This document shows positions 22,716 to 49,200 of a stretch of DNA of 64,000 bases, piece after piece (positions within the stretch are counted from its first letter, which is position 1; each line of letters starts with the position of its first letter). Source of the stretch: Mytilus galloprovincialis. Its lineage: Eukaryota; Mollusca; Bivalvia; Mytilida; Mytilidae. Location of the stretch: positions 60,412,181 to 60,476,180 of the forward strand of contig NC_134848.1 in NCBI RefSeq assembly GCF_965363235.1. The letters are read 5' to 3'. The notes under the pieces are model-generated. The model saw nothing but the letters and a program-made list of their open reading frames with translations, made no database searches and had not been told where the DNA came from. The translations under genes were made by a program, and so were the position numbers.

Positions 22716-22724
22716 GACCTATAG
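22716..22724. repeat. Left 9-bp target-site duplication of the MULE
   Basis: GACCTATAG, identical to 28164-28172. Removing 22725-28172 restores a continuous retroelement tail (ACTGTGACCTATAG then TTGTCAGTAG), which proves the insertion boundaries. Confidence 0.95.
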
Positions 22725-22831
22725 GGGGTCCGCTCGACAGTCCGACGGTTCGATAGTCCGACGGTTCAATAGTCCGACGGTTCGATAATCCGACAGTTCT
22801 ATAGTCCGACGGTTCGATAGTCCGACATATC
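22725..22831 (+). repeat. MULE left terminal inverted repeat, six 16-bp units
   Basis: After an 11-bp outer block (GGGGTCCGCTC), six 16-bp units follow from 22736. The commonest form is GATAGTCCGACGGTTC, with one or two changes in most units. The core TCCGAC is the most conserved part. A repeated terminal motif of this type is a plausible multiple binding site for the transposase; that role is inference. Confidence 0.9.
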
Positions 22832-23817
22832 ACACCGAATATGATATAAATAGGTTACACTACAGACCTGAACTGAATGGTCCCTTCATTAAACTAAAAT
22901 TTTTAGGAAATCCATTGAAGAATTAAAAAGTTAATTTAATTTTAATATATCGACACATATACGGGCCCAGGTCATTTCATGTCCACTTTCAGGTCTTTGG
23001 TGTATCCCGATATGGACTACTTAGCCCCTAAGAAAGACCGTATACAATAAAGATCGACTTGTTTTGGAAGAGAAAGTCGCTTAATTACACCACATTCGCC
23101 AATTAGTTGAAACGTTAAATAAAGAAAGATGCTTATTAAACACAGGGTACATTTTATATTTTAAAAACCTTTACAGCTAGGTATATTCAACGTTCCGAAT
23201 CCTCTAGTCCTATTATATAAACCTTCGTAGGTATATATCGTCTTCATTCGACGTTTTTAATCGGATCTTTTTTACTATCAATTCTGAACCACGTCGTATA
23301 AAGAAGAAATGAACCTACGAAGGCTTATATTATAGGACTAAGAATTGTCAGGCGTTAGCCCTATGTGCAATTGTGCAATTTTTAAACTATGATAAAAAAT
23401 TAACTGATCATAAGATTAATGGTTGGATTTTAACTTCATATACTTGCTTTAATACATCAAAAATGCGTCGGATATGTTTTTTAAAGATATAACTTGTTTA
23501 AAAAAAAAACGAATATTGATACTTAAATTATCATAAAAGCGATTACAATTGCAGACACGTGTGCCGCTTATTCCCCCTTTTTTATTTATTTTTTATAAGA
23601 AAATATTCTTTCATATTTCAACCTATTTTAAGCTATTCAAGAATTTCTCACTTTGCACGTGTGTAATAACGGTGATGCGCGTTACCACGTTGATGATGCA
23701 AGCACAGGAAGTGTCAAAATATGGCACTGCATTGGCCCCTATTCCTTATATAGAAATGTCAATTTTGTTTTGAAATTGACATCTTTGAGTAAATTGAAAG
23801 TTCCCATGAAAAGATGG
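22832..23817. other. MULE 5' subterminal region, no gene seen
   Basis: AT-rich sequence between the left inverted repeat and the transposase promoter. Short frames are present but show no recognisable domain and precede the likely transposase start. Confidence 0.5.
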
Positions 23818-23826
23818 TATATAAAG
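23818..23826 (+). promoter_or_regulatory. Probable TATA box of the MULE transposase
   Basis: TATATAAAG lies 34 bp upstream of the best start codon (23860), so transcription would begin only a few bases before that ATG. This argues for the start at 23860 and against an upstream ATG in the same frame at 23653. Confidence 0.55.
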
Positions 23827-23859
23827 GACTCTACTGCCCTTTACCATTACATCTCTAAA

Positions 23860-25962
23860 ATGGCTGCTAGGGTCATTGCTGGAAATCGCGGAGGAAAAGT
23901 GTTAATATACAACGGTTTCAAATACCAGAAAAACCGACAGAGGATTCATGCTATATACTGGCGATGTTGGAGGCAAGAGTGCAGGGCCAATCTTCAAACA
24001 AATATATTCAACTTAGATGACCAAGCACCTAATATAATTATTTTGCAAGAAGGTCCCCATACACACGAAGAAGACGAGACGGTTATAGGAGTCGATACAA
24101 CATTACAGTCTTTGCGTAGTGCAATTCAACAAGACCCAAGCGTCCCAATAAAGCGGGTATACAAAAACTTTGCGAGAAATGTGGCACAAGGAGGCGGGGA
24201 TCGAGAACATATTCCTGAATTCCACAGAGTCCGTTCCGCAATGACACGAACTCGACTAGCTCACGTCCCCGCTGTGCCTCATGATATTGATGAAGTTTCC
24301 ATTCACGGGCATGGGAAACGAACATGGTCGGAAGATAGATTTCTGTTGTACAAAAACAATGATTGGGGTGTTCTGATATATGCAACACATGAAAACTTAT
24401 TGAATCTTAGACAATGTAAAGAGATATATTGCGACGGGACCTTCAGAACTTGTCCAAGGCCATATTCACAATATTTTACCATTCACGGCCGGTACCGTAA
24501 TAGGGTGATGTGTTTTGTAAACTGTCTAATGACTGATCGCAATATTGGTGACTATAGACATATTTTAGAAACACTGAAAGTCAAAATTCGACAAATCACA
24601 CGGCACAGATGGCGCCCAAGAAAAGTCATCTGTGATTTTGAGCTCGCATTGATAGCAGCAGTAGAAACTGAGCTTCCACGCGCTCAAATTAGTGGTTGCT
24701 ATTTTCACTTCAATCAGAGTTTGTGGCGAAAAGTCCAGAACTTAGGTCTTGCGGCAAGTTACCGACGACGACCAGCAGTAAAAAGCCTAGTCCGTAAAGT
24801 TATGGCCATTGGATACCTACCAATTGCTGTTGTGCGCCAGAACTTTCGTTTGTTGAGAACATCCCGTAGAACTCAGAGACTCTGCAGGCGGTATAATGGA
24901 CTAAGGGACTTTCTTGACTACTTCGAAAGGAACTATTTGAACGGGTTGTTCCCTCCCCAGATGTGGAATGTTTATGAAAGAGATATGAACAACAGAATAA
25001 ACAACAGCGTTGAAAGTAAGTGTTATCTTTTTATTTCAAAAGTAAATCTGACGAGAAAAAGGTCTCAATTTAAACTTCACATTCAGAATATTTTTTACTT
25101 AAAACGATTTAGATTTAAATTTTCGCTTGGTATACAAATGCATTTCTACAGTTAAACTGATATGCAGGGGTTAGGGGGGCTTTAGTATAAGGTTTAAAAT
25201 TTCGTAATTTTATTTAATACACAATTTTTCGTTTATTCTTTAATTATTAAACATTCTTTTTCTAAAATAGTGGACACCATTTACCCCCCCCCCTCCTTTT
25301 CCGGCTACTGAAGGTGTAAATGATTTGATTTATTATGTATAAAATCACGTCAGTACAAGTATGTATAGCTGTAGCGTTTGCTTCTCCGTTCCATATTACG
25401 AATTTGGTTTTATGTTTAAGAAAATCTTAAAAAATATGAACATAAGTGCCACCAATACGTCTATATAAACATCAGAATATGTGATATGATTGCAAATGGG
25501 ACAACTCTATCTAAAACCTAATTAGGTAGTAAATTTAAGCAATTTAAGCCTTGACTCACACAGCAAAGTAAACTTTCAAGGGCTACAAAATGACAAGTGT
25601 AAAACAGTCATGTCAAACACAAAGAAGTATTTAATTATGTATCACATATTTTTACTTGATATTAATATCGTTTAATATTATTAATTATTATTAATATTGT
25701 AGGTTTCCACCGACTCTGGAATAACACTGTTTCGGTTAGACACCCTTCTTTGTGGACTTTCATAAGATGCTTAAAAGACCAACAAGCAACTTTGGAGAAC
25801 TCCGTGGAGACTGTCGATAGGGGCGATCCAGCGCCGAAAAGAAAAAGAAAATGGCGAAATCTAGAAGCACGGATGATGAGATTGAAAGAGGAATATAATA
25901 ATGGAACGAGAAATTTAGACCAATACTGGAACGCAGTGTGCTATGGAGTGGTTCAGTTTTGA
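23860..25962 (+). CDS. FLYWCH + MULE transposase, two exons (23860-25015, 25703-25962)
   Basis: The spliced product is 471 residues. The first exon ends at a GTAAGT donor (25016) and the second begins after a TAG acceptor at 25702; the reading phase matches and joins NNSVE to SFHRLWNN, a junction conserved in this family. Residues ~13-70 form a FLYWCH zinc-binding domain (YWRCW, then CR, then HTH). The transposase domain has D192 in CDGTF and D259 in ICDFE, followed by C280 and H283 in GCYFHFNQ. The third acidic residue is probably E385 in NNSVES. The start at 23860 has A at -3 and G at +4 and sits just behind a TATA box; an in-frame ATG at 23653 would add 69 residues without domain similarity. 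Unspliced reading would end at 25155. The protein would bind the 16-mer ends and cut and paste the element in the nucleus. No break is visible. Confidence 0.9.
25465..25630. repeat. Dispersed repeat within the transposase intron
   Basis: Sequence such as GTGATATGATTGCAAATGGG with ACAACTCTATC, then ACTCACACAGCAAAGTAAAC, resembles, in reverse orientation, the tail of retroelement copies elsewhere in the window (compare 54384-54480). It lies inside the intron 25016-25702 and leaves the splice sites intact. Confidence 0.45.
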
Positions 25963-26389
25963 CACTTTGTTGTATTTTCTTTAAACATTGTGTAAATTTA
26001 AAAGTGAACTTTTTGATAAAACTATTTAGTTATGAAAACTACTGAATTTTTGCTGACAATTTGTGATATTTTTCAAAGATAAATAATTCCAAATTTGATT
26101 ATAGTGTTTTGCATGAAAATATTTGATGAATGAAATGCATCACCAACAAATGCAAAAAAAAAAGCACAAACGGATTAGTAACACATTCTTCTTCTAATGC
26201 AAATACAAGAACTAAATGCCGTTACCCCCCCCCCCCCCCCCCCCAAAAAGCAAAGAACAAAAGAAATGTTTGCGGTAACGCTATACCACTTACACCAGGA
26301 AACGGACTAATTGGTACTGTATGTTTTTATTGTGTAATTTTTATCAAATCATTTGATATAATTATAATTGTTAAATGTTTATTTGGCCT
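25963..26389. other. MULE region 3' of the transposase, no gene seen
   Basis: AT-rich sequence following the transposase stop, with a run of about 20 C near 26226-26244. A short open frame crosses it but is low complexity and shows no domain. Confidence 0.5.
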
Positions 26390-26399
26390 ATATCAATTT

Positions 26400-26765
26400 G
26401 ATGATTTTTGGTCGTTTTCAACTGATTTTTGTCGTTTTCAACTGATTTTTATCGTGCTGTATACCACCGCTGTCTAAGGGAATCTTGGATCCAGAAAAAA
26501 TGTTTAACCCGGCTGTGGTTTTTGTTTGTTGCTGTATTTTCACACTTGTTTTTCTTTTATTGGTTTTCTCATCTGAATTGTTTTATACTGGTCATACTGG
26601 TAATTTAGGGGGCCTTTATAAAGCCCCCAATTGCTTTATAGTGTTATCCGATTCTCCATGTTGAAGATCATACAGTAACCTAGCTATAATTGCTTACTTT
26701 AACGACATGTGGTCTTGGATGGACAGTTGTGTCGTTGGCAATCACAAACACATTGTCTTATTTTA
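26400..26765 (+). repeat. Retroelement tail copy inside the MULE
   Basis: TTTTCAACTGATTTTTATCG, a variant of the TACCACTGTCCC block, GGTTTTCTC with GAATTGTTTTA, and GTTGTGTCGTTGGCAATCAC follow the same order as the retroelement tail at 22385-22724 plus 28173-28250, but diverged. It is therefore a second, older or variant member carried within the transposon. Confidence 0.6.
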
Positions 26766-26989
26766 ATATGAATTAAGCGTAAACCTTGATAAGTAGTAAG
26801 CAATATTAATGAATAACAAGAGTAAGTAAGGAATCACAAGAATATACAAAGAAATTATTTTTTAGTCCGACAAAATGTGTAATATAACTTAGGTGTCGTA
26901 TCATACAGGTACCACTGTATTGAATATTGCATACTCACCCATATCGTGTTGGCAGTAATAAATCATTTGGAGAGATGTCTTGAACATCT

Positions 26990-27245
26990 AAGAAACAACA
27001 ATCATAAAAATGAAATAGCAATTCATAAAAGAGAGGCGAAAGATACCAGAGGGACATTCAAACTCATAAGTCAAAAATAAACTGACAACGCCATGGCTAC
27101 AAAAAAAAAACAACAGACAAATAGACAAACAATAGTACACAAAGCACAACATAGAAAACTGAAAACTGAAGACTTGAGAAACACGAATGCCGCCAAAAAC
27201 TGGAGTGATCCCATGTGCTCCGGAAGGGTAAGCACCTGCATATAC
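26990..27245 (+). repeat. SINE-like dispersed repeat, copy 1
   Basis: The copy includes GAGGCGAAAGATACCAGAGG, AAATAAACTGACAACGCCAT, a block naming many CAGACAAATAGACAAAC steps, and ends in GCTCCGGAAGGGTAAGC. A second, collinear copy lies at 47870-48073, so this is one dispersed family of about 200-250 bp. No coding potential. Confidence 0.75.
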
Positions 27246-27249
27246 ATCA

Positions 27250-28040
27250 ATCAACTTTAACCAAATAGAATGATCATAATCAATACGTCTTGCACAGGTT
27301 TATACTGAATCATTTATAGCTAAGCTAAATTTGGATGGTACTATAATAATATTGATTAATAAACAATAAATTTCCCTCAAATGTAGGAGCTTTTATAAGC
27401 TCCCGCAGGAAGCTATTTTGGTAGAATTGTCGATTTGTGCCATTGTGCTTATAGTAAGATGATTTCTTCAATTAGAAGTAGAAATCTAACTTCCGGTTTT
27501 GTGTAAAGACACAGAAGGCTTAAGTTTGTTCGTTCGTCCTAAGGTCCGTCTTTTCGTCACTGGATCCGTTCACAGCTGTAGTTAATTGTCCGATATTTCG
27601 TTGAATCATTTTTCATGGAAGATATGGATACACATTTCCAAATAACAATTCTTTAAAATCTCCGAGTAGTGTGAACACGTGAAAAACAGTCATTTGAGAC
27701 CGGAACTGATTATTGGAGGCCTCCATCTTTCATGATGAAAAACATGAGTGACCGGAAGTCACATCCAGCTTACCTCCGATAGATGAGTAGGATCACTTTT
27801 CATTTGGTTTGAACTATTTTCAGCGGACTACTGTTTCTTTGGTTCGTCTCAACAGACGATTCAAATGAACCGAACTTACGGTTCGTGTTCCACTTCCGGT
27901 TCGACTGCGAAGTCGGTACGAGCCTCATAATGAAAGCAGCCTTTCAAATCAATTCCTGTCATACGACTTTCATCACATATGCGCAGTACCCTCATTCCAC
28001 ACGGGACTTCCGATTCAAATATAGAAGCAGAAATAACACT
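27250..28040. other. MULE 3' internal region, no gene seen
   Basis: No clear gene. It has a short palindrome at about 27388-27412 (GGAGCTTTTATAAGCTCC) and is less AT-rich near the right terminal repeat. A short frame entering the terminal repeat at 27885-28172 is explained by the regular 16-bp units. Confidence 0.4.
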
Positions 28041-28163
28041 GAACTGTCGGACTACCGAACTGTCGGACTATTGAACTGTCGGACCATTGAACCGTCGGAC
28101 CATCGAGCTGTCGGACCATCGAACCGTCGGACTATTGAGCTGTCGGACTATCACTACGGCCCC
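28041..28163 (-). repeat. MULE right terminal inverted repeat, seven 16-bp units
   Basis: Seven 16-bp units from 28041 to 28152 of the form GAACTGTCGGACTATT, the inverted counterpart of the left repeat, followed by an 11-bp outer block ending CGGCCCC. The core GTCGGAC is invariant or nearly so. The right end has one unit more than the left. Confidence 0.9.
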
Positions 28164-28172
28164 GACCTATAG

Positions 28173-30116: not shown

Positions 30117-30122
30117 TTTATT
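30117..30122 (-). terminator. Polyadenylation signal overlapping the zinc-finger stop codon
   Basis: The minus strand reads GGTGATTAATAAAATG: AATAAA overlaps the TAA stop. If used, the 3' untranslated region would be very short. Confidence 0.35.
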
Positions 30123-30831
30123 AATCACCAGTGTGTGTTCGTACATGTTTATCTCTGCTAGTACTTTGAGTAAACCATTTCCCGCACACATCACATTTAT
30201 ACGGTTTATCTCCAGTATGGGATCTCATATGTTTCTGCAAGTCATTACTTTGAATGAATTCTTTGTCACATTTGTCACATTTGTGTGGTTTATCACCAGT
30301 GTGTGTTCTTATGTGCCTTTGTAAATTTCCATTATCACCAAACCCTCTTCCACATACACTACATTTAAAAGGTTTATCACCAGTATGTGAATTTATGTGT
30401 CTCTTCAGGTGCATATCCCTACTAAACTCTTTTCCACAGTCTCCACATTTGTAAGGTTTATCTCCAGTGTGTATTTTCTCGTGTCTTTTTAAATTGTGAC
30501 TCGAACTAAACGCTTTACCGCATACTTTACACTCATGGGGTTTATCACCAGTGTGTATTCGCATGTGCCCCTTTAAGTGCTGACCCATACTAAATTTTGT
30601 ACCACATACATCACATTTATAAGGTTTATCACCAGTATGTGTTCTCATGTGTTTCTCTATGTCACACTTTTGTAAAAATTCTTTATCACATTCGTCACAT
30701 TTAAACGGTTTATCACCTGTGTGTGTTCTCATGTGTCTCTGTAAGTGACCCCTCTGGCTAAACCTTTTACCACATACATCACACATAAAAGACAAATCCT
30801 CGGGGTGTGTTCTTTTTTGTATCTCCGACAT
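30121..30831 (-). CDS. C2H2 zinc-finger protein, eight fingers
   Basis: The 236-residue product consists almost wholly of eight C2H2 fingers of exactly 28 residues each, starting near residue 15. Every finger keeps Cys-X2-Cys and His-X3-His, and all linkers are of the form HTGDKP; the last finger ends HTGD at the stop. Such poly-finger proteins bind DNA in the nucleus, usually as transcription regulators. There is no separate effector domain. The fingertip residues differ between fingers, so a specific DNA target is likely. The first Met (MSEIQKRTHPEDL) lies behind a degenerate finger that reads in part in another frame (30832-30960), and another decayed finger lies past the stop. The gene is therefore either a trimmed member of a longer array, or the last exon of a gene whose upstream exons start beyond a possible acceptor (TTTTCTTATTCAG, minus strand) near 31130. 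Alternatively it is an intact segment of a decaying copy. Confidence 0.8.
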   Translation of the reverse strand: MSEIQKRTHPEDLSFMCDVCGKRFSQRGHLQRHMRTHTGDKPFKCDECDKEFLQKCDIEKHMRTHTGDKPYKCDVCGTKFSMGQHLKGHMRIHTGDKPHECKVCGKAFSSSHNLKRHEKIHTGDKPYKCGDCGKEFSRDMHLKRHINSHTGDKPFKCSVCGRGFGDNGNLQRHIRTHTGDKPHKCDKCDKEFIQSNDLQKHMRSHTGDKPYKCDVCGKWFTQSTSRDKHVRTHTGD

Positions 30832-46271: not shown

Positions 46272-49200
46272 ATGTATCTCTCATTAATTTTCATGTCTTT
46301 AATAATTGCGAGTTCCGCCGAGTTCTCGAGATGGCGATATTGGAGGAGAGCGAAAACAATGGATATCTACGTTAGTCCGTGTGGTTCGGACAAAAATAAA
46401 GGGTAAGAAACATATTCCGTAATTTAAGATAAAACTACGCAGGCACTTGTTATATGTATTTTTTTTCTCGACTAATGTTTATTATTATATTGTACATATG
46501 CTTTTGTCAAATTTTGCACAAAAAGGATATCAAAGTTTGTGTTTGAAAGACGAAACCTCCAAATATATAGTCGGCACTTCTATTTTGAAGTGAATTATCA
46601 TTGAAAAGATATGCTCATATTAATAAATCTACTGTTTTCAAAACTTTGAATTTCAGGAAATACAAATGATTTTCTATATCCTAGGTATAGAATTTAACTT
46701 TTTTTTATTCGAGCGTCACTGTTGATTCGTTTGAAGACCAAATTGTGCGACTGAAATAACATAGCAGATACATCTATCTATGTTGAGTTTATACTAGTAT
46801 GCGGTTACCGTAATATAATTGTCTTAAAATTTGTTGCATTGTCGAAAAAACTTTAATTGATTGATAAAAGAAATATAAAGAATATGTTGTATTCATTCAA
46901 TACACAAAAATCAGTACATGCATATTACAACACACAGAAAGAAAAGGAACAATGCATGTGTTGTTTTTTCATCTCAAAGTTACAGTATGGCCTTCAACAC
47001 GGAGCAAAAACCACAAAGACAAATTTCTACCTCATACCTCTACAACATAACCCACTAAATACATATAGTCACTGGATTATTCTGCACTAATCTTGAAATA
47101 TTGTCTGAGATGACTGCTTTAGTTAACCACGACTTTTGCGTTAGCTTTGTTAAAAAAATTTCCACTATTATCTGTTTGATATATGTATCCGATCTAATTT
47201 ACACAGAACGAGTAGCGGGTCCCCTTTGAAGACAATAGAACATGCGCTGTCATTAATAAATACTGATAATTACAATGGAAACGGTGAGTTAGAATTAAAC
47301 TTTAGTAAAAAAAAAAACCAAAATAACAACTATAAATGGTATCTATATGAACCTGCACTTCGATTATACATGGGATATACAATGGGAGATAACGAAAAGT
47401 TTCCTTTAGCGTAGAGCACAAGCCCTTGCGAAGGGACCCCCCTTCATTTTGGTGTTAATTTAATTCAGAAATTGTAGTTTTTGAATGTCACGGCACTTGC
47501 TCTTATCCATACGATATTATTATACATGAGAAGTGGTTGGAACCAATTTGAAAGAGATTTCAAACTCACAAGTCGATAACAAATATCACAACACGGCGAA
47601 ATACCGAAAAACGACCAATTTACAAATAAAAGTTTGTAACTCACAATTCAGAAAAAATTTAAGGACTTGGCAAAATGAACCCTACCAAAATCCTGGGTTC
47701 ATCCCGGGTACTATGATAGGATAAGAGGATCCAGTTACACACTAGGAACTTATCGTGTTGCATTCGTCTCAACTCGGCCGATTCCGTACCCTCAGAAGGA
47801 GAGTAGCGGATTCTACCGAGGATTGCCGACTGATCGTGTTGCTTATTTAAGTAGAAAATAACAGTAGTTTATAGGAGAGGGGCGAAAGATACCCGGGGGA
47901 CAGTCAGACTCATAGATCAAAAATAAACTGACAACTCCATGGCTAAACATGAAAAAGACAAATAGACAAATAATACTACACAAAACACAGCATAGAAAAC
48001 TAAAGACTAAGCAACACGAACCCCACCAAAAACTGGGGGTGATCTCAGGTACTCTGGAAGGATAAGTAGATCCTGTTTTTTCTTGGTTGTGCTATTCGTT
48101 AAATGTTAGTATGAAGGTTACCGGTCAATAACATGTCGTCACGTTAAATGTTAGTATGAAGGTTACCGGTCAATAACATGTCGTCACGTTAAATGTTAGT
48201 ATGAAGGTTACCGGTCAATAACATGTCGTCACGTTAAATGTTAGTATGAAGGTTACCGGTCAATAACATGTCGTCACGTTAAATGTTAGTATGAAGGTTA
48301 CCGGTCAATAACATGTCGTCACGTTAAATGTTAGTATGAAGGTTACCGGTCAATAACATGTCGTCACGTTAAATGTTAGTATGAAGGTTACCGGTCAATA
48401 ACATGTCGTCACGTTAAAATCATTCAATACCTTACATTACATTACATGTTTCAAATATTTAATTATACTTATTGGTATCACTTGAAATTGAGAATGGAAT
48501 TTTTTCTTGTATTGTTAGTAAAATTTAATTAAAAAAAATGTAAGACAGACATATATGTTCCGTAGTAATTGTCCACGGTGTAATATGTATTTTTTCGGAG
48601 AATAGAACAATGATATATTTTACTCAAGAAAACAAATGGATCAGGTAATGATGAAAATGAGGACCAGCTATGCCTTCTTTTTTCAGATATTGTAATAGAA
48701 TTGATGTGTGGAACTTGTGGATCTACATGTTACTTTGATCTAAAGTCTACTTTAGTCATCACAAACAAGGAGTCCCGAAAACTAACCATCCGAACAAATA
48801 AAAAAGATAAAGTTCGAGTGGTACGTATATTCTAAGACTATCTTGATTTGATTATTTATTTTGATTAAATATTTCATTTAAATAACCTGAAAAAAGTGCA
48901 AAATTTCATAATACTATTGCCAATTTGGCTTTTTGTTCCAAAACCACGGTGCTCGTTTTCATACACGTATCTTAAATACAACCAGAACAGATCAAAGCAA
49001 AGGGTACTCGCAGTAACTGTAACGATCTCATAGCACATTCAGCAACTAGATTTTTATTTGATTTAAATTGCCATTATATTACTTTCAACAAGAATCGAAA
49101 TGTGCACAAAGCGCTATCCTATTTCATTTGGTGAGATGTATTCGATTATTTTAACTTTCAGACAGGAGGGCAACGGATACCTTGGAACAAGTTTAAACCA

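What the first reader, a model, noticed from the sequence alone, without database searches (positions are those of the whole stretch)
22725..28163. Apparently intact MULE whose terminal repeats are arrays of 16-mers
The element has a perfect 9-bp duplication, an open two-exon transposase with FLYWCH domain and the expected acidic residues, a TATA box, and ends built of six and seven tandem 16-bp units. Tandem-unit ends differ from the long unique inverted repeats of classical Mutator and may provide multivalent transposase binding. Unit number differs at the two ends, so they can expand or contract.
Basis: partly seen in the sequence, partly recalled or inferred. Interest (0 to 1): 0.72.

Follow-up and report, generated by a model that had tools for sequence, protein, structure and literature searches.

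The report
Mussel-like genome Mutator transposon, repeat-built ends
A complete-looking jumping gene carries short end tags followed by rows of a repeated 16-letter site, probably docking sites for its own enzyme; this design is already known from mosquito and nematode relatives, and here two related families and many copies hint at which part of the site is kept and show how the rows grow and shrink.

Summary
The finding is real. Window 22725-28163 is a 5,439-bp FLYWCH-type Mutator-like element (MULE) with a perfect 9-bp target duplication, an open two-exon transposase (471 aa; D192, D259, E385) and inverted arrays of a 16-mer at both ends. It is not a local minisatellite: patterns for the left and right end match 41 and 29 places genome-wide (up to 3 mismatches; reversed controls 0), and 10 of 18 two-ended copies keep flush perfect 8- or 9-bp duplications. 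Each end is an end-specific 15-bp cap plus the shared array. Arrays change by whole units: one exact 16-bp loss, one exact 48-bp gain, one exchange between ends. A sister family (transposase about 42-54% identical) has its own 15-bp caps and 15-mer arrays sharing 13 contiguous bases with the 16-mer, which points to a transposase site. Limits: 8 of 18 copies lack duplications; this copy alone has W152G and T380I; binding and activity are untested. The architecture is known: Tm1 in Meloidogyne has unequal caps and variable unit numbers, and Muta1 and most long-TIR MULEs of Aedes have tandem-unit ends. New member of a known kind.

The parts
22716..22724 (.). left copy of 9-bp target site duplication GACCTATAG
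22725..22739 (+). left cap GGGGTCCGCTCGACA, end-specific, outside the array
   Evidence: genome-wide cap+core pattern 41 matches, reversed control 0; exact in 22 of 41 left ends held
22740..22826 (+). left array: 5 full 16-mers (GTCCGAC(G/A)GTTCNATA, one starting with A) plus a 7-bp partial unit GTCCGAC
23205..23340 (.). internal imperfect inverted repeat (50-nt arms, 84%), role unknown
23820..23825 (+). TATAAA box candidate, about 1.08 kb inside the left end and 40 bp before the ATG; same stretch in the C3 copy
23860..25015 (+). transposase exon 1 (FLYWCH about 23875-24066; MULE domain about 24427-24717; D192, D259 and E385 all in this exon)
25016..25702 (+). GT-AG intron, one base after the catalytic E codon; sister-family matches also break at residue 385
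25703..25962 (+). transposase exon 2 with stop
28037..28148 (-). right array: 7 full 16-mers, inverted relative to the left array
28149..28163 (-). right cap GGGGCCGTAGTGATA (read inwards), end-specific
   Evidence: genome-wide cap+core pattern 29 matches, reversed control 0; exact in 12 of 25 right ends held
28164..28172 (.). right copy of 9-bp target site duplication GACCTATAG

Best explanation
A cut-and-paste DNA transposon of the MULE superfamily (FLYWCH + MULE transposase, Phantom-like by domain architecture, Mutator/Foldback-like by its ends). Shown: end-specific 15-bp caps; inverted arrays of a 16-mer; 8-9 bp duplications on insertion; coding sequence conserved more than the non-coding DNA; change of array length by whole units. 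Inferred: the FLYWCH domain binds the stretch GATAGTCCGAC of each unit, so each end offers several docking sites at about 1.5 helical turns spacing; the transposase multimer gathers both ends and cuts next to the GGG(G) of the caps, which mark left and right.
For: Copies: 41 left and 29 right cap patterns, reversed control 0; 13 of 13 cap pairs within 20 kb are convergent and one left plus one right (not independent). Duplications: 10 of 18 two-ended copies have flush perfect ones, five of 8 bp and five of 9 bp; Muta1 too makes both lengths, 21 and 39 of 60 in yeast (PMC5225508 section 8). Transposase: Pfam domains; exons 17 of 1416 substitutions against non-coding 143 of 3712 versus the C3 copy, Fisher P 1.9e-7; dN/dS 0.41 against C3 and 0.22-0.46 against four diverged, partly broken copies with dS 0.24-0.34. 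Sites: 245 of 291 spacings between core-like words are multiples of 16; in 295 units GTCCGAC holds 1.47-1.93 bits per position. A sister family (transposase 42% identical over 321 aa in one copy, 54% over 198 aa in another) has 15-mers ACTCGATAGTCCGAC sharing 13 contiguous bases with GGTTCGATAGTCCGAC (1 of 2000 shuffles as good for these chosen variants), its own two unequal 15-bp caps, and perfect 8-9 bp duplications in 4 of 4 pairs tested.
Against: 8 of 18 two-ended copies have no 8-9 bp duplication, among them 3 of the 4 long (over 5 kb) window-subfamily copies with both ends: C3, C14 and C6. dN/dS against C14 and C11 is 0.91 and 0.83, on few changes. Conservation inside the unit is not confined to GTCCGAC: positions 10, 11 and 15 hold 1.52-1.75 bits and only 8, 13 and 16 are clearly variable (0.87, 0.44, 1.02), and the first units were partly picked by a pattern containing GTCCGAC. 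In the sister copy c9 the array end is not the best DNA match (E 7e-4, below dispersed repeats); it is in c12 (E 5e-12). C6 keeps only one full left unit. In Aedes, natural Muta1 derivatives of differing TIR length all moved, though less than the construct with 250 bp of each end, and Muta5, with a like array, did not move in yeast (PMC5225508). No binding, expression or excision was measured here. The structure model is weak (mean pLDDT 56.1, FLYWCH region under 50).
Confidence: 0.72

Rival explanations
1. The arrays are bound not for transposition but for control of silencing or transcription, as VANC proteins of Arabidopsis VANDAL elements bind tandem repeats in non-coding DNA; the caps alone carry the transposase site.
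For: VANC targets often form tandem repeats that vary between related copies (PMC5735166, passages). Arrays here also vary in unit number.
Against: No second long frame: besides the transposase the longest frame listed in the element is 115 aa; VANC homology itself was not searched. VANC21 sites lie in introns, intergenic and terminal non-coding regions, whereas the arrays seen here lie at the ends. The candidate TATA box is about 1.08 kb from the left array.
Confidence: 0.12
2. The arrays are a by-product: short end sites repeatedly duplicated by slippage or unequal exchange, with no need for more than one or two units.
For: Exact whole-unit gain and loss; copies with 1-2 full left units exist (C6, C10:65138619, C4:61143801), one of them with an 8-bp duplication (C10:65138619). 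Natural Muta1 derivatives of differing TIR length all moved in yeast. The 16-mer itself looks like two related 8-mers (3 mismatches; 281 of 20000 shuffles).
Against: Units keep position-specific identity between copies (same-position 91-98% against different-position 78-90%), so arrays are old and not turning over freely. Counted by eye, the 7 of 8 sister-family ends read to their inner border have six or more core words each, though the right end of the C9 sister copy has four. A third, younger family also has repeated motifs at its ends.
Confidence: 0.14
3. The 16-mers are a local minisatellite or chance repeat unrelated to transposition.
For: None found beyond their being tandem repeats.
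Against: Cap-anchored, inverted, genome-wide, with duplications and 0 reversed-pattern controls.
Confidence: 0.01

Closest known systems
Tm1 (Mutator/Foldback family of Meloidogyne, PMC3169594; passages read)
   Same: FLYWCH + MULE transposase; asymmetric terminal motifs outside the inverted part; variable number of 13-15 bp tandem repeats differing between the two ends; 8-10, mostly 9 bp duplications (45 of 53); short non-autonomous copies.
   Different: Caps 7 bp plus a 3-bp motif instead of 15 bp; 7 exons instead of 2; unit similarity not significant (94 of 1500 and 537 of 1500 shuffles). Its purine-rich motif D was not searched for here.
Muta1 and other MULEs of Aedes aegypti (PMC5225508; section 8 and passages read)
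   Same: FLYWCH transposase of about 500 aa in two exons; 8 or 9 bp duplications; terminal motif plus 9 copies of a 12-bp repeat with 3-4 bp spacers; non-autonomous copies with variable unit number; Muta1 moves in yeast.
   Different: [quoted passage not shown] here the two caps differ from each other.
Phantom family of animal MULEs (as used in PMC6446971; passages read)
   Same: FLYWCH and MULE domains; 8-10 bp duplications; variable TIR length.
   Different: Phylogenetic placement could not be tested: no reference proteins were at hand.
VANDAL/VANC system of Arabidopsis (PMC5735166; passages read)
   Same: Transposon with tandem repeats that gain and lose units.
   Different: There the repeats are targets of a separate anti-silencing protein; no second long frame was seen here.

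Membership tests
MULE superfamily | MULE transposase domain with acidic triad | tested here: met
   PF10551 E 4e-10; D192, D259, E385 within CDG, CDFE and NNxxE contexts
MULE superfamily | 8-11 bp target duplications (range as given in PMC6446971) | tested here: met
   10 of 18 two-ended copies: five 8 bp, five 9 bp; 8 of 18 none
MULE superfamily | RNase H-like fold related to IS256 | tested here: inconclusive
   Foldseek: 3 matches at E <= 0.001, two ISCth4 chains (best E 2e-4) and Hermes (E 6e-4), but mean pLDDT 56.1 and TM under 0.3; Argonaute and integrase chains follow closely; that ISCth4 is an IS256-family enzyme is recalled
Phantom | N-terminal FLYWCH plus MULE domain | tested here: met
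   PF04500 E 2.8e-10 and PF10551
Phantom | transposase falls in the animal Phantom clade (group 20 of PMC6446971) | not testable with these tools
   no Phantom reference proteins available
Mutator/Foldback (Tm1-like) | composite terminal repeats with variable numbers of short tandem units | tested here: met
Mutator/Foldback (Tm1-like) | asymmetric terminal motifs outside the tandem part | tested here: met
   two distinct 15-bp caps; 13 of 13 pairs are left plus right
Mutator/Foldback (Tm1-like) | shared unit sequence with Tm1 | tested here: not met
   alignment score not clearly better than shuffles; not a defining feature of the architectural class
VANDAL/VANC type | second TE-encoded protein bound to the repeats | tested here: inconclusive
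   no second long frame listed; VANC homology not searched

The most novel reading that the evidence does not exclude
In this animal MULE lineage 'where to dock' and 'which end' are written in separate modules: a shared, expandable array of GTCCGAC sites serves both ends, while the outer 15-bp cap alone tells left from right. The arrays then act as exchange platforms that let a cap be joined to a new interior, as in the C8 copy, where a right cap and right units run into left-type units and left interior DNA, inside a perfect 9-bp duplication.
Probability: 0.28. Interest if true: 0.5.

Novelty: new member of a known kind. Interest (0 to 1): 0.36.

Why it matters
Tandem-unit ends recur in FLYWCH MULEs of insects, nematodes and now this genome (probably a mussel). 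In the passages I read no binding site within such units has been mapped; in Aedes, derivatives with differing TIR length all moved, at lower frequency than full ends. Two families here share part of the unit but differ in linker sequence and length (16 against 15 bp), and copies show an exact gain, an exact loss and an end exchange. That gives a defined candidate site and a natural unit-number series for binding and excision tests. Otherwise it is an ordinary transposon annotation.

Tried and rejected
Similarity of the 16-mer to the Tm1 repeat looked striking by eye but was not clearly better than shuffles (94 of 1500 and 537 of 1500): rejected. A minisatellite reading: rejected. A viral relative (Phantom is listed for ichnoviruses in PMC6446971): no match in viral contigs (exact peptide patterns only). 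Solved structures: best match 2rpr, a FLYWCH domain, E 0.084. Tandem arrays near other MULE domains, L001-L008: none of the terminal kind within 1.5 kb; those loci stopped short of the ends, and wider pieces of the L006/L008 family did show arrays. The structure model is too weak for conclusions on DNA binding. Literature: searches (open-access full text only, listings capped; Repbase and supplementary files were not searched) listed no paper whose title or shown abstract describes this family; passages of six papers and one section of one of them were read.

Full report
Setting. The window lies at G000:C11:60412181-60476180 of a 1.385-Gb genome in 331 contigs.

The observation. The element runs from 22725 to 28163 and is flanked by GACCTATAG on both sides. 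Its left array has 5 full 16-mers and a 7-bp partial one, its right array 7. Outside each array lies a 15-bp cap, GGGGTCCGCTCGACA on the left and GGGGCCGTAGTGATA on the right (read inwards), which agree at 8 of 15 positions. The transposase has FLYWCH and MULE domains, is open over 471 codons in two exons, and places D192, D259 and E385 in exon 1. The intron starts one base after the E codon; its donor and AG are kept in C3, C14 and C11, and matches of the sister family also break at residue 385 in 3 of 3 loci.

It is a family. Searches with the coding DNA, the left end and the right end returned 48, 41 and 41 matches, which are lower bounds. Cap-plus-core patterns with up to 3 mismatches gave 41 left and 29 right matches, with 0 for the reversed patterns. 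Thirteen pairs lie within 20 kb, all convergent and all left-right; common descent makes these pairs non-independent. Five more two-ended copies, each with a damaged or interrupted end, were found by eye. Of the 18, 10 have flush perfect duplications (9 bp in the window copy, C8:90070124, C6:73557404, C10:36581931 and C2:75229349; 8 bp in C10:65138619, C12:57114703, C5:75917431, C1:32175801 and C2:98693375). Eight have none: C3:20053660, C14:32231039, C6:15136013, C14:70601790, C3:61566492, C9:14950763, C2:13851426 (4 bp only) and C5:53802843. Among the four long window-subfamily copies with both ends only the window copy keeps its duplication; ectopic exchange or flank loss are possible reasons and were not tested.

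State of the transposase. Against C3 (exon 1 disrupted by a 4-bp insertion) the exons differ at 17 of 1416 aligned bases and the non-coding parts at 143 of 3712, Fisher P 1.9e-7; dN/dS in exon 1 is 0.41 on 15 changes. Against four diverged copies, with 1, 3, 1 and 0 stops that were skipped along with gaps, dN/dS is 0.22, 0.38, 0.23 and 0.46 at dS 0.24-0.34; against C14 and C11 it is 0.91 and 0.83 on 15 and 8 changes. Three of the 10 rows I set aside: C6 (7 codons aligned), C1 (7 stops, 0.68) and C7 (many gaps, 0.37). C14 lacks the start region; C11 shows no match upstream of element position 1493, has a 5-bp insertion in exon 1 and one stop in exon 2. From residue 61 on, five residues of exon 1 in the window copy differ from the unanimous family copies; two of these are also conserved outside the family: W152 (in C3, C14 and the one sister copy that covers it; not in the third family) and T380 (in 6 of 6 other sequences that cover it). 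So 'intact' means open and complete, not shown to be active.

Arrays. I held 66 ends: 40 of the 41 left and 24 of the 29 right pattern matches plus one further end of each kind. In-phase full units counted from the cap range 0-9 on the left and 0-8 on the right; low counts are partly phase breaks. In 63 arrays (3 segmental duplicates dropped) 245 of 291 successive spacings of core-like words are multiples of 16; 36 more are 8, because the second half of the unit (GTTCGATA) resembles the first (GTCCGACG). In 295 units the core holds 1.47-1.93 bits per position, but positions 10, 11 and 15 are similarly constant; the clearly variable ones are 8, 13 and 16. Units keep their place: same-position identity is 91.4, 96.5 and 98.2% in three sets against 78.4, 90.3 and 82.9% for different positions (the sets hold 5, 3 and 5 hand-picked arrays of equal unit number). 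Events: the window left array equals the C14 array minus exactly 16 bp, 0 mismatches (against C9 the best such fit has 2); the left array at C5:49347088 carries an exact 48-bp duplication, 0 mismatches. At C8:90073021 a right cap and right-type units pass into left-type units and left interior DNA (element positions 12-565 inverted), within the perfect duplication TACTGAATC.

Sister family. MULE loci L006-L008 encode a transposase 42% identical over 321 aa (C9 copy), 54% over the 198-aa catalytic part but 32% over residues 67-190 (C12 copy), and 49-55% over 41-61 residues of the FLYWCH domain. Their ends carry caps GGGATAACGTCGATA and GGGGTCGTCCCGATA followed by tandem 15-mers with the core GATAGTCCGAC. 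A pattern of two units matched 68 places, many of them overlapping within arrays, reversed control 0. Four pairs of ends were tested and 4 of 4 have flush perfect duplications, three of 8 bp and one of 9 bp; the other loci were not tested. The two units, in the variants chosen, share 13 contiguous bases and differ in the linker (AC against GGT); 1 of 2000 shuffles scored as well. For the C12 copy the array end is the best DNA match to the whole window element (E 5e-12); for the C9 copy it is weaker (E 7e-4) than matches to dispersed repeats. The transposase of the third family (L109-L111) is about 25% identical and its end motif is unrelated. Site and transposase thus diverge together over three families, as expected if the transposase binds the site; three families are few.

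Mechanism. Shown: family, ends, duplications, coding constraint, whole-unit change. Inferred: FLYWCH binding of the core, several transposase molecules per end, caps as cleavage and end-identity signals. Multiple subterminal binding sites are established for hAT and CACTA transposases (recalled). The model of exon 1 (mean pLDDT 56.1; best between residues 170 and 360) finds ISCth4 and Hermes as nearest solved folds, with weak scores.

Known or new. Tm1 shows asymmetric terminal motifs, a variable number of 13-15 bp units that differs between the two ends, 9-bp duplications and a FLYWCH-MULE transposase. In Aedes aegypti 10 of 12 long-TIR MULE families have 9-15 bp subterminal tandem repeats; Muta1 is active in yeast, makes 8- and 9-bp duplications, and moves natural derivatives of differing TIR length, none as often as the construct with 250 bp of each end; Muta5, with nine 15-bp units, did not move in yeast. 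A 2026 arthropod survey suggests that longer TIRs may offer several cooperative binding sites (PMC13359780, passages). Molluscan MULEs are known from library work (PMC10294476, passages), but the passages read do not describe ends. I therefore file this as a new member of a known kind; the specific gain is the shared stretch of the unit across two families and the catalogue of array events.

Noticed in passing
L109, L110, L111 (C13:28762400-28766200, C4:103167300-103171300, C2:35407500-35411300): A second, very young MULE family of about 2.68 kb: 11 places (the query itself among them) cover the full 1,378-bp coding query and 3 more nearly all of it, all at 100% after rounding. Its ends carry irregularly spaced repeats of GGACATTTGAGCG, and two of three copies show 8-bp duplications by eye (AGTATTTA, AAAATGAC). 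A good candidate for current activity.
   Followed up: partly
C6:48374726-48379786, C11:70255936-70261068, C2:24384390-24391956, C9:30980563-30991933: Sister MULE family with 15-mer arrays and its own two 15-bp caps; perfect 8-9 bp duplications in 4 of 4 pairs tested.
   Followed up: yes
C8:90070124-90073021 (L046, L043): Copy whose right cap and first right units run into left-type array and left interior DNA, inside a perfect 9-bp duplication: an exchange of ends through the arrays.
   Followed up: yes
C1:56536719, C3:83258536, C14:30070041, C10:78030986, C11:44704050: Right-cap-like matches with 3 mismatches sharing GGGGTCGTAG(T/G)GATAGTC, perhaps a further related family; not fetched.
   Followed up: no
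window 30121-30831 (-): 236-aa frame of tandem C2H2 zinc-finger-like repeats near the element; naming by motif is recalled, no family search was run on it.
   Followed up: no
window 48097-48418: 45-bp minisatellite, 7.2 copies, 100% identical.
   Followed up: no
window 23205-23340: Imperfect 50-nt inverted repeat with a 36-nt loop inside the 5' non-coding part of the element.
   Followed up: no
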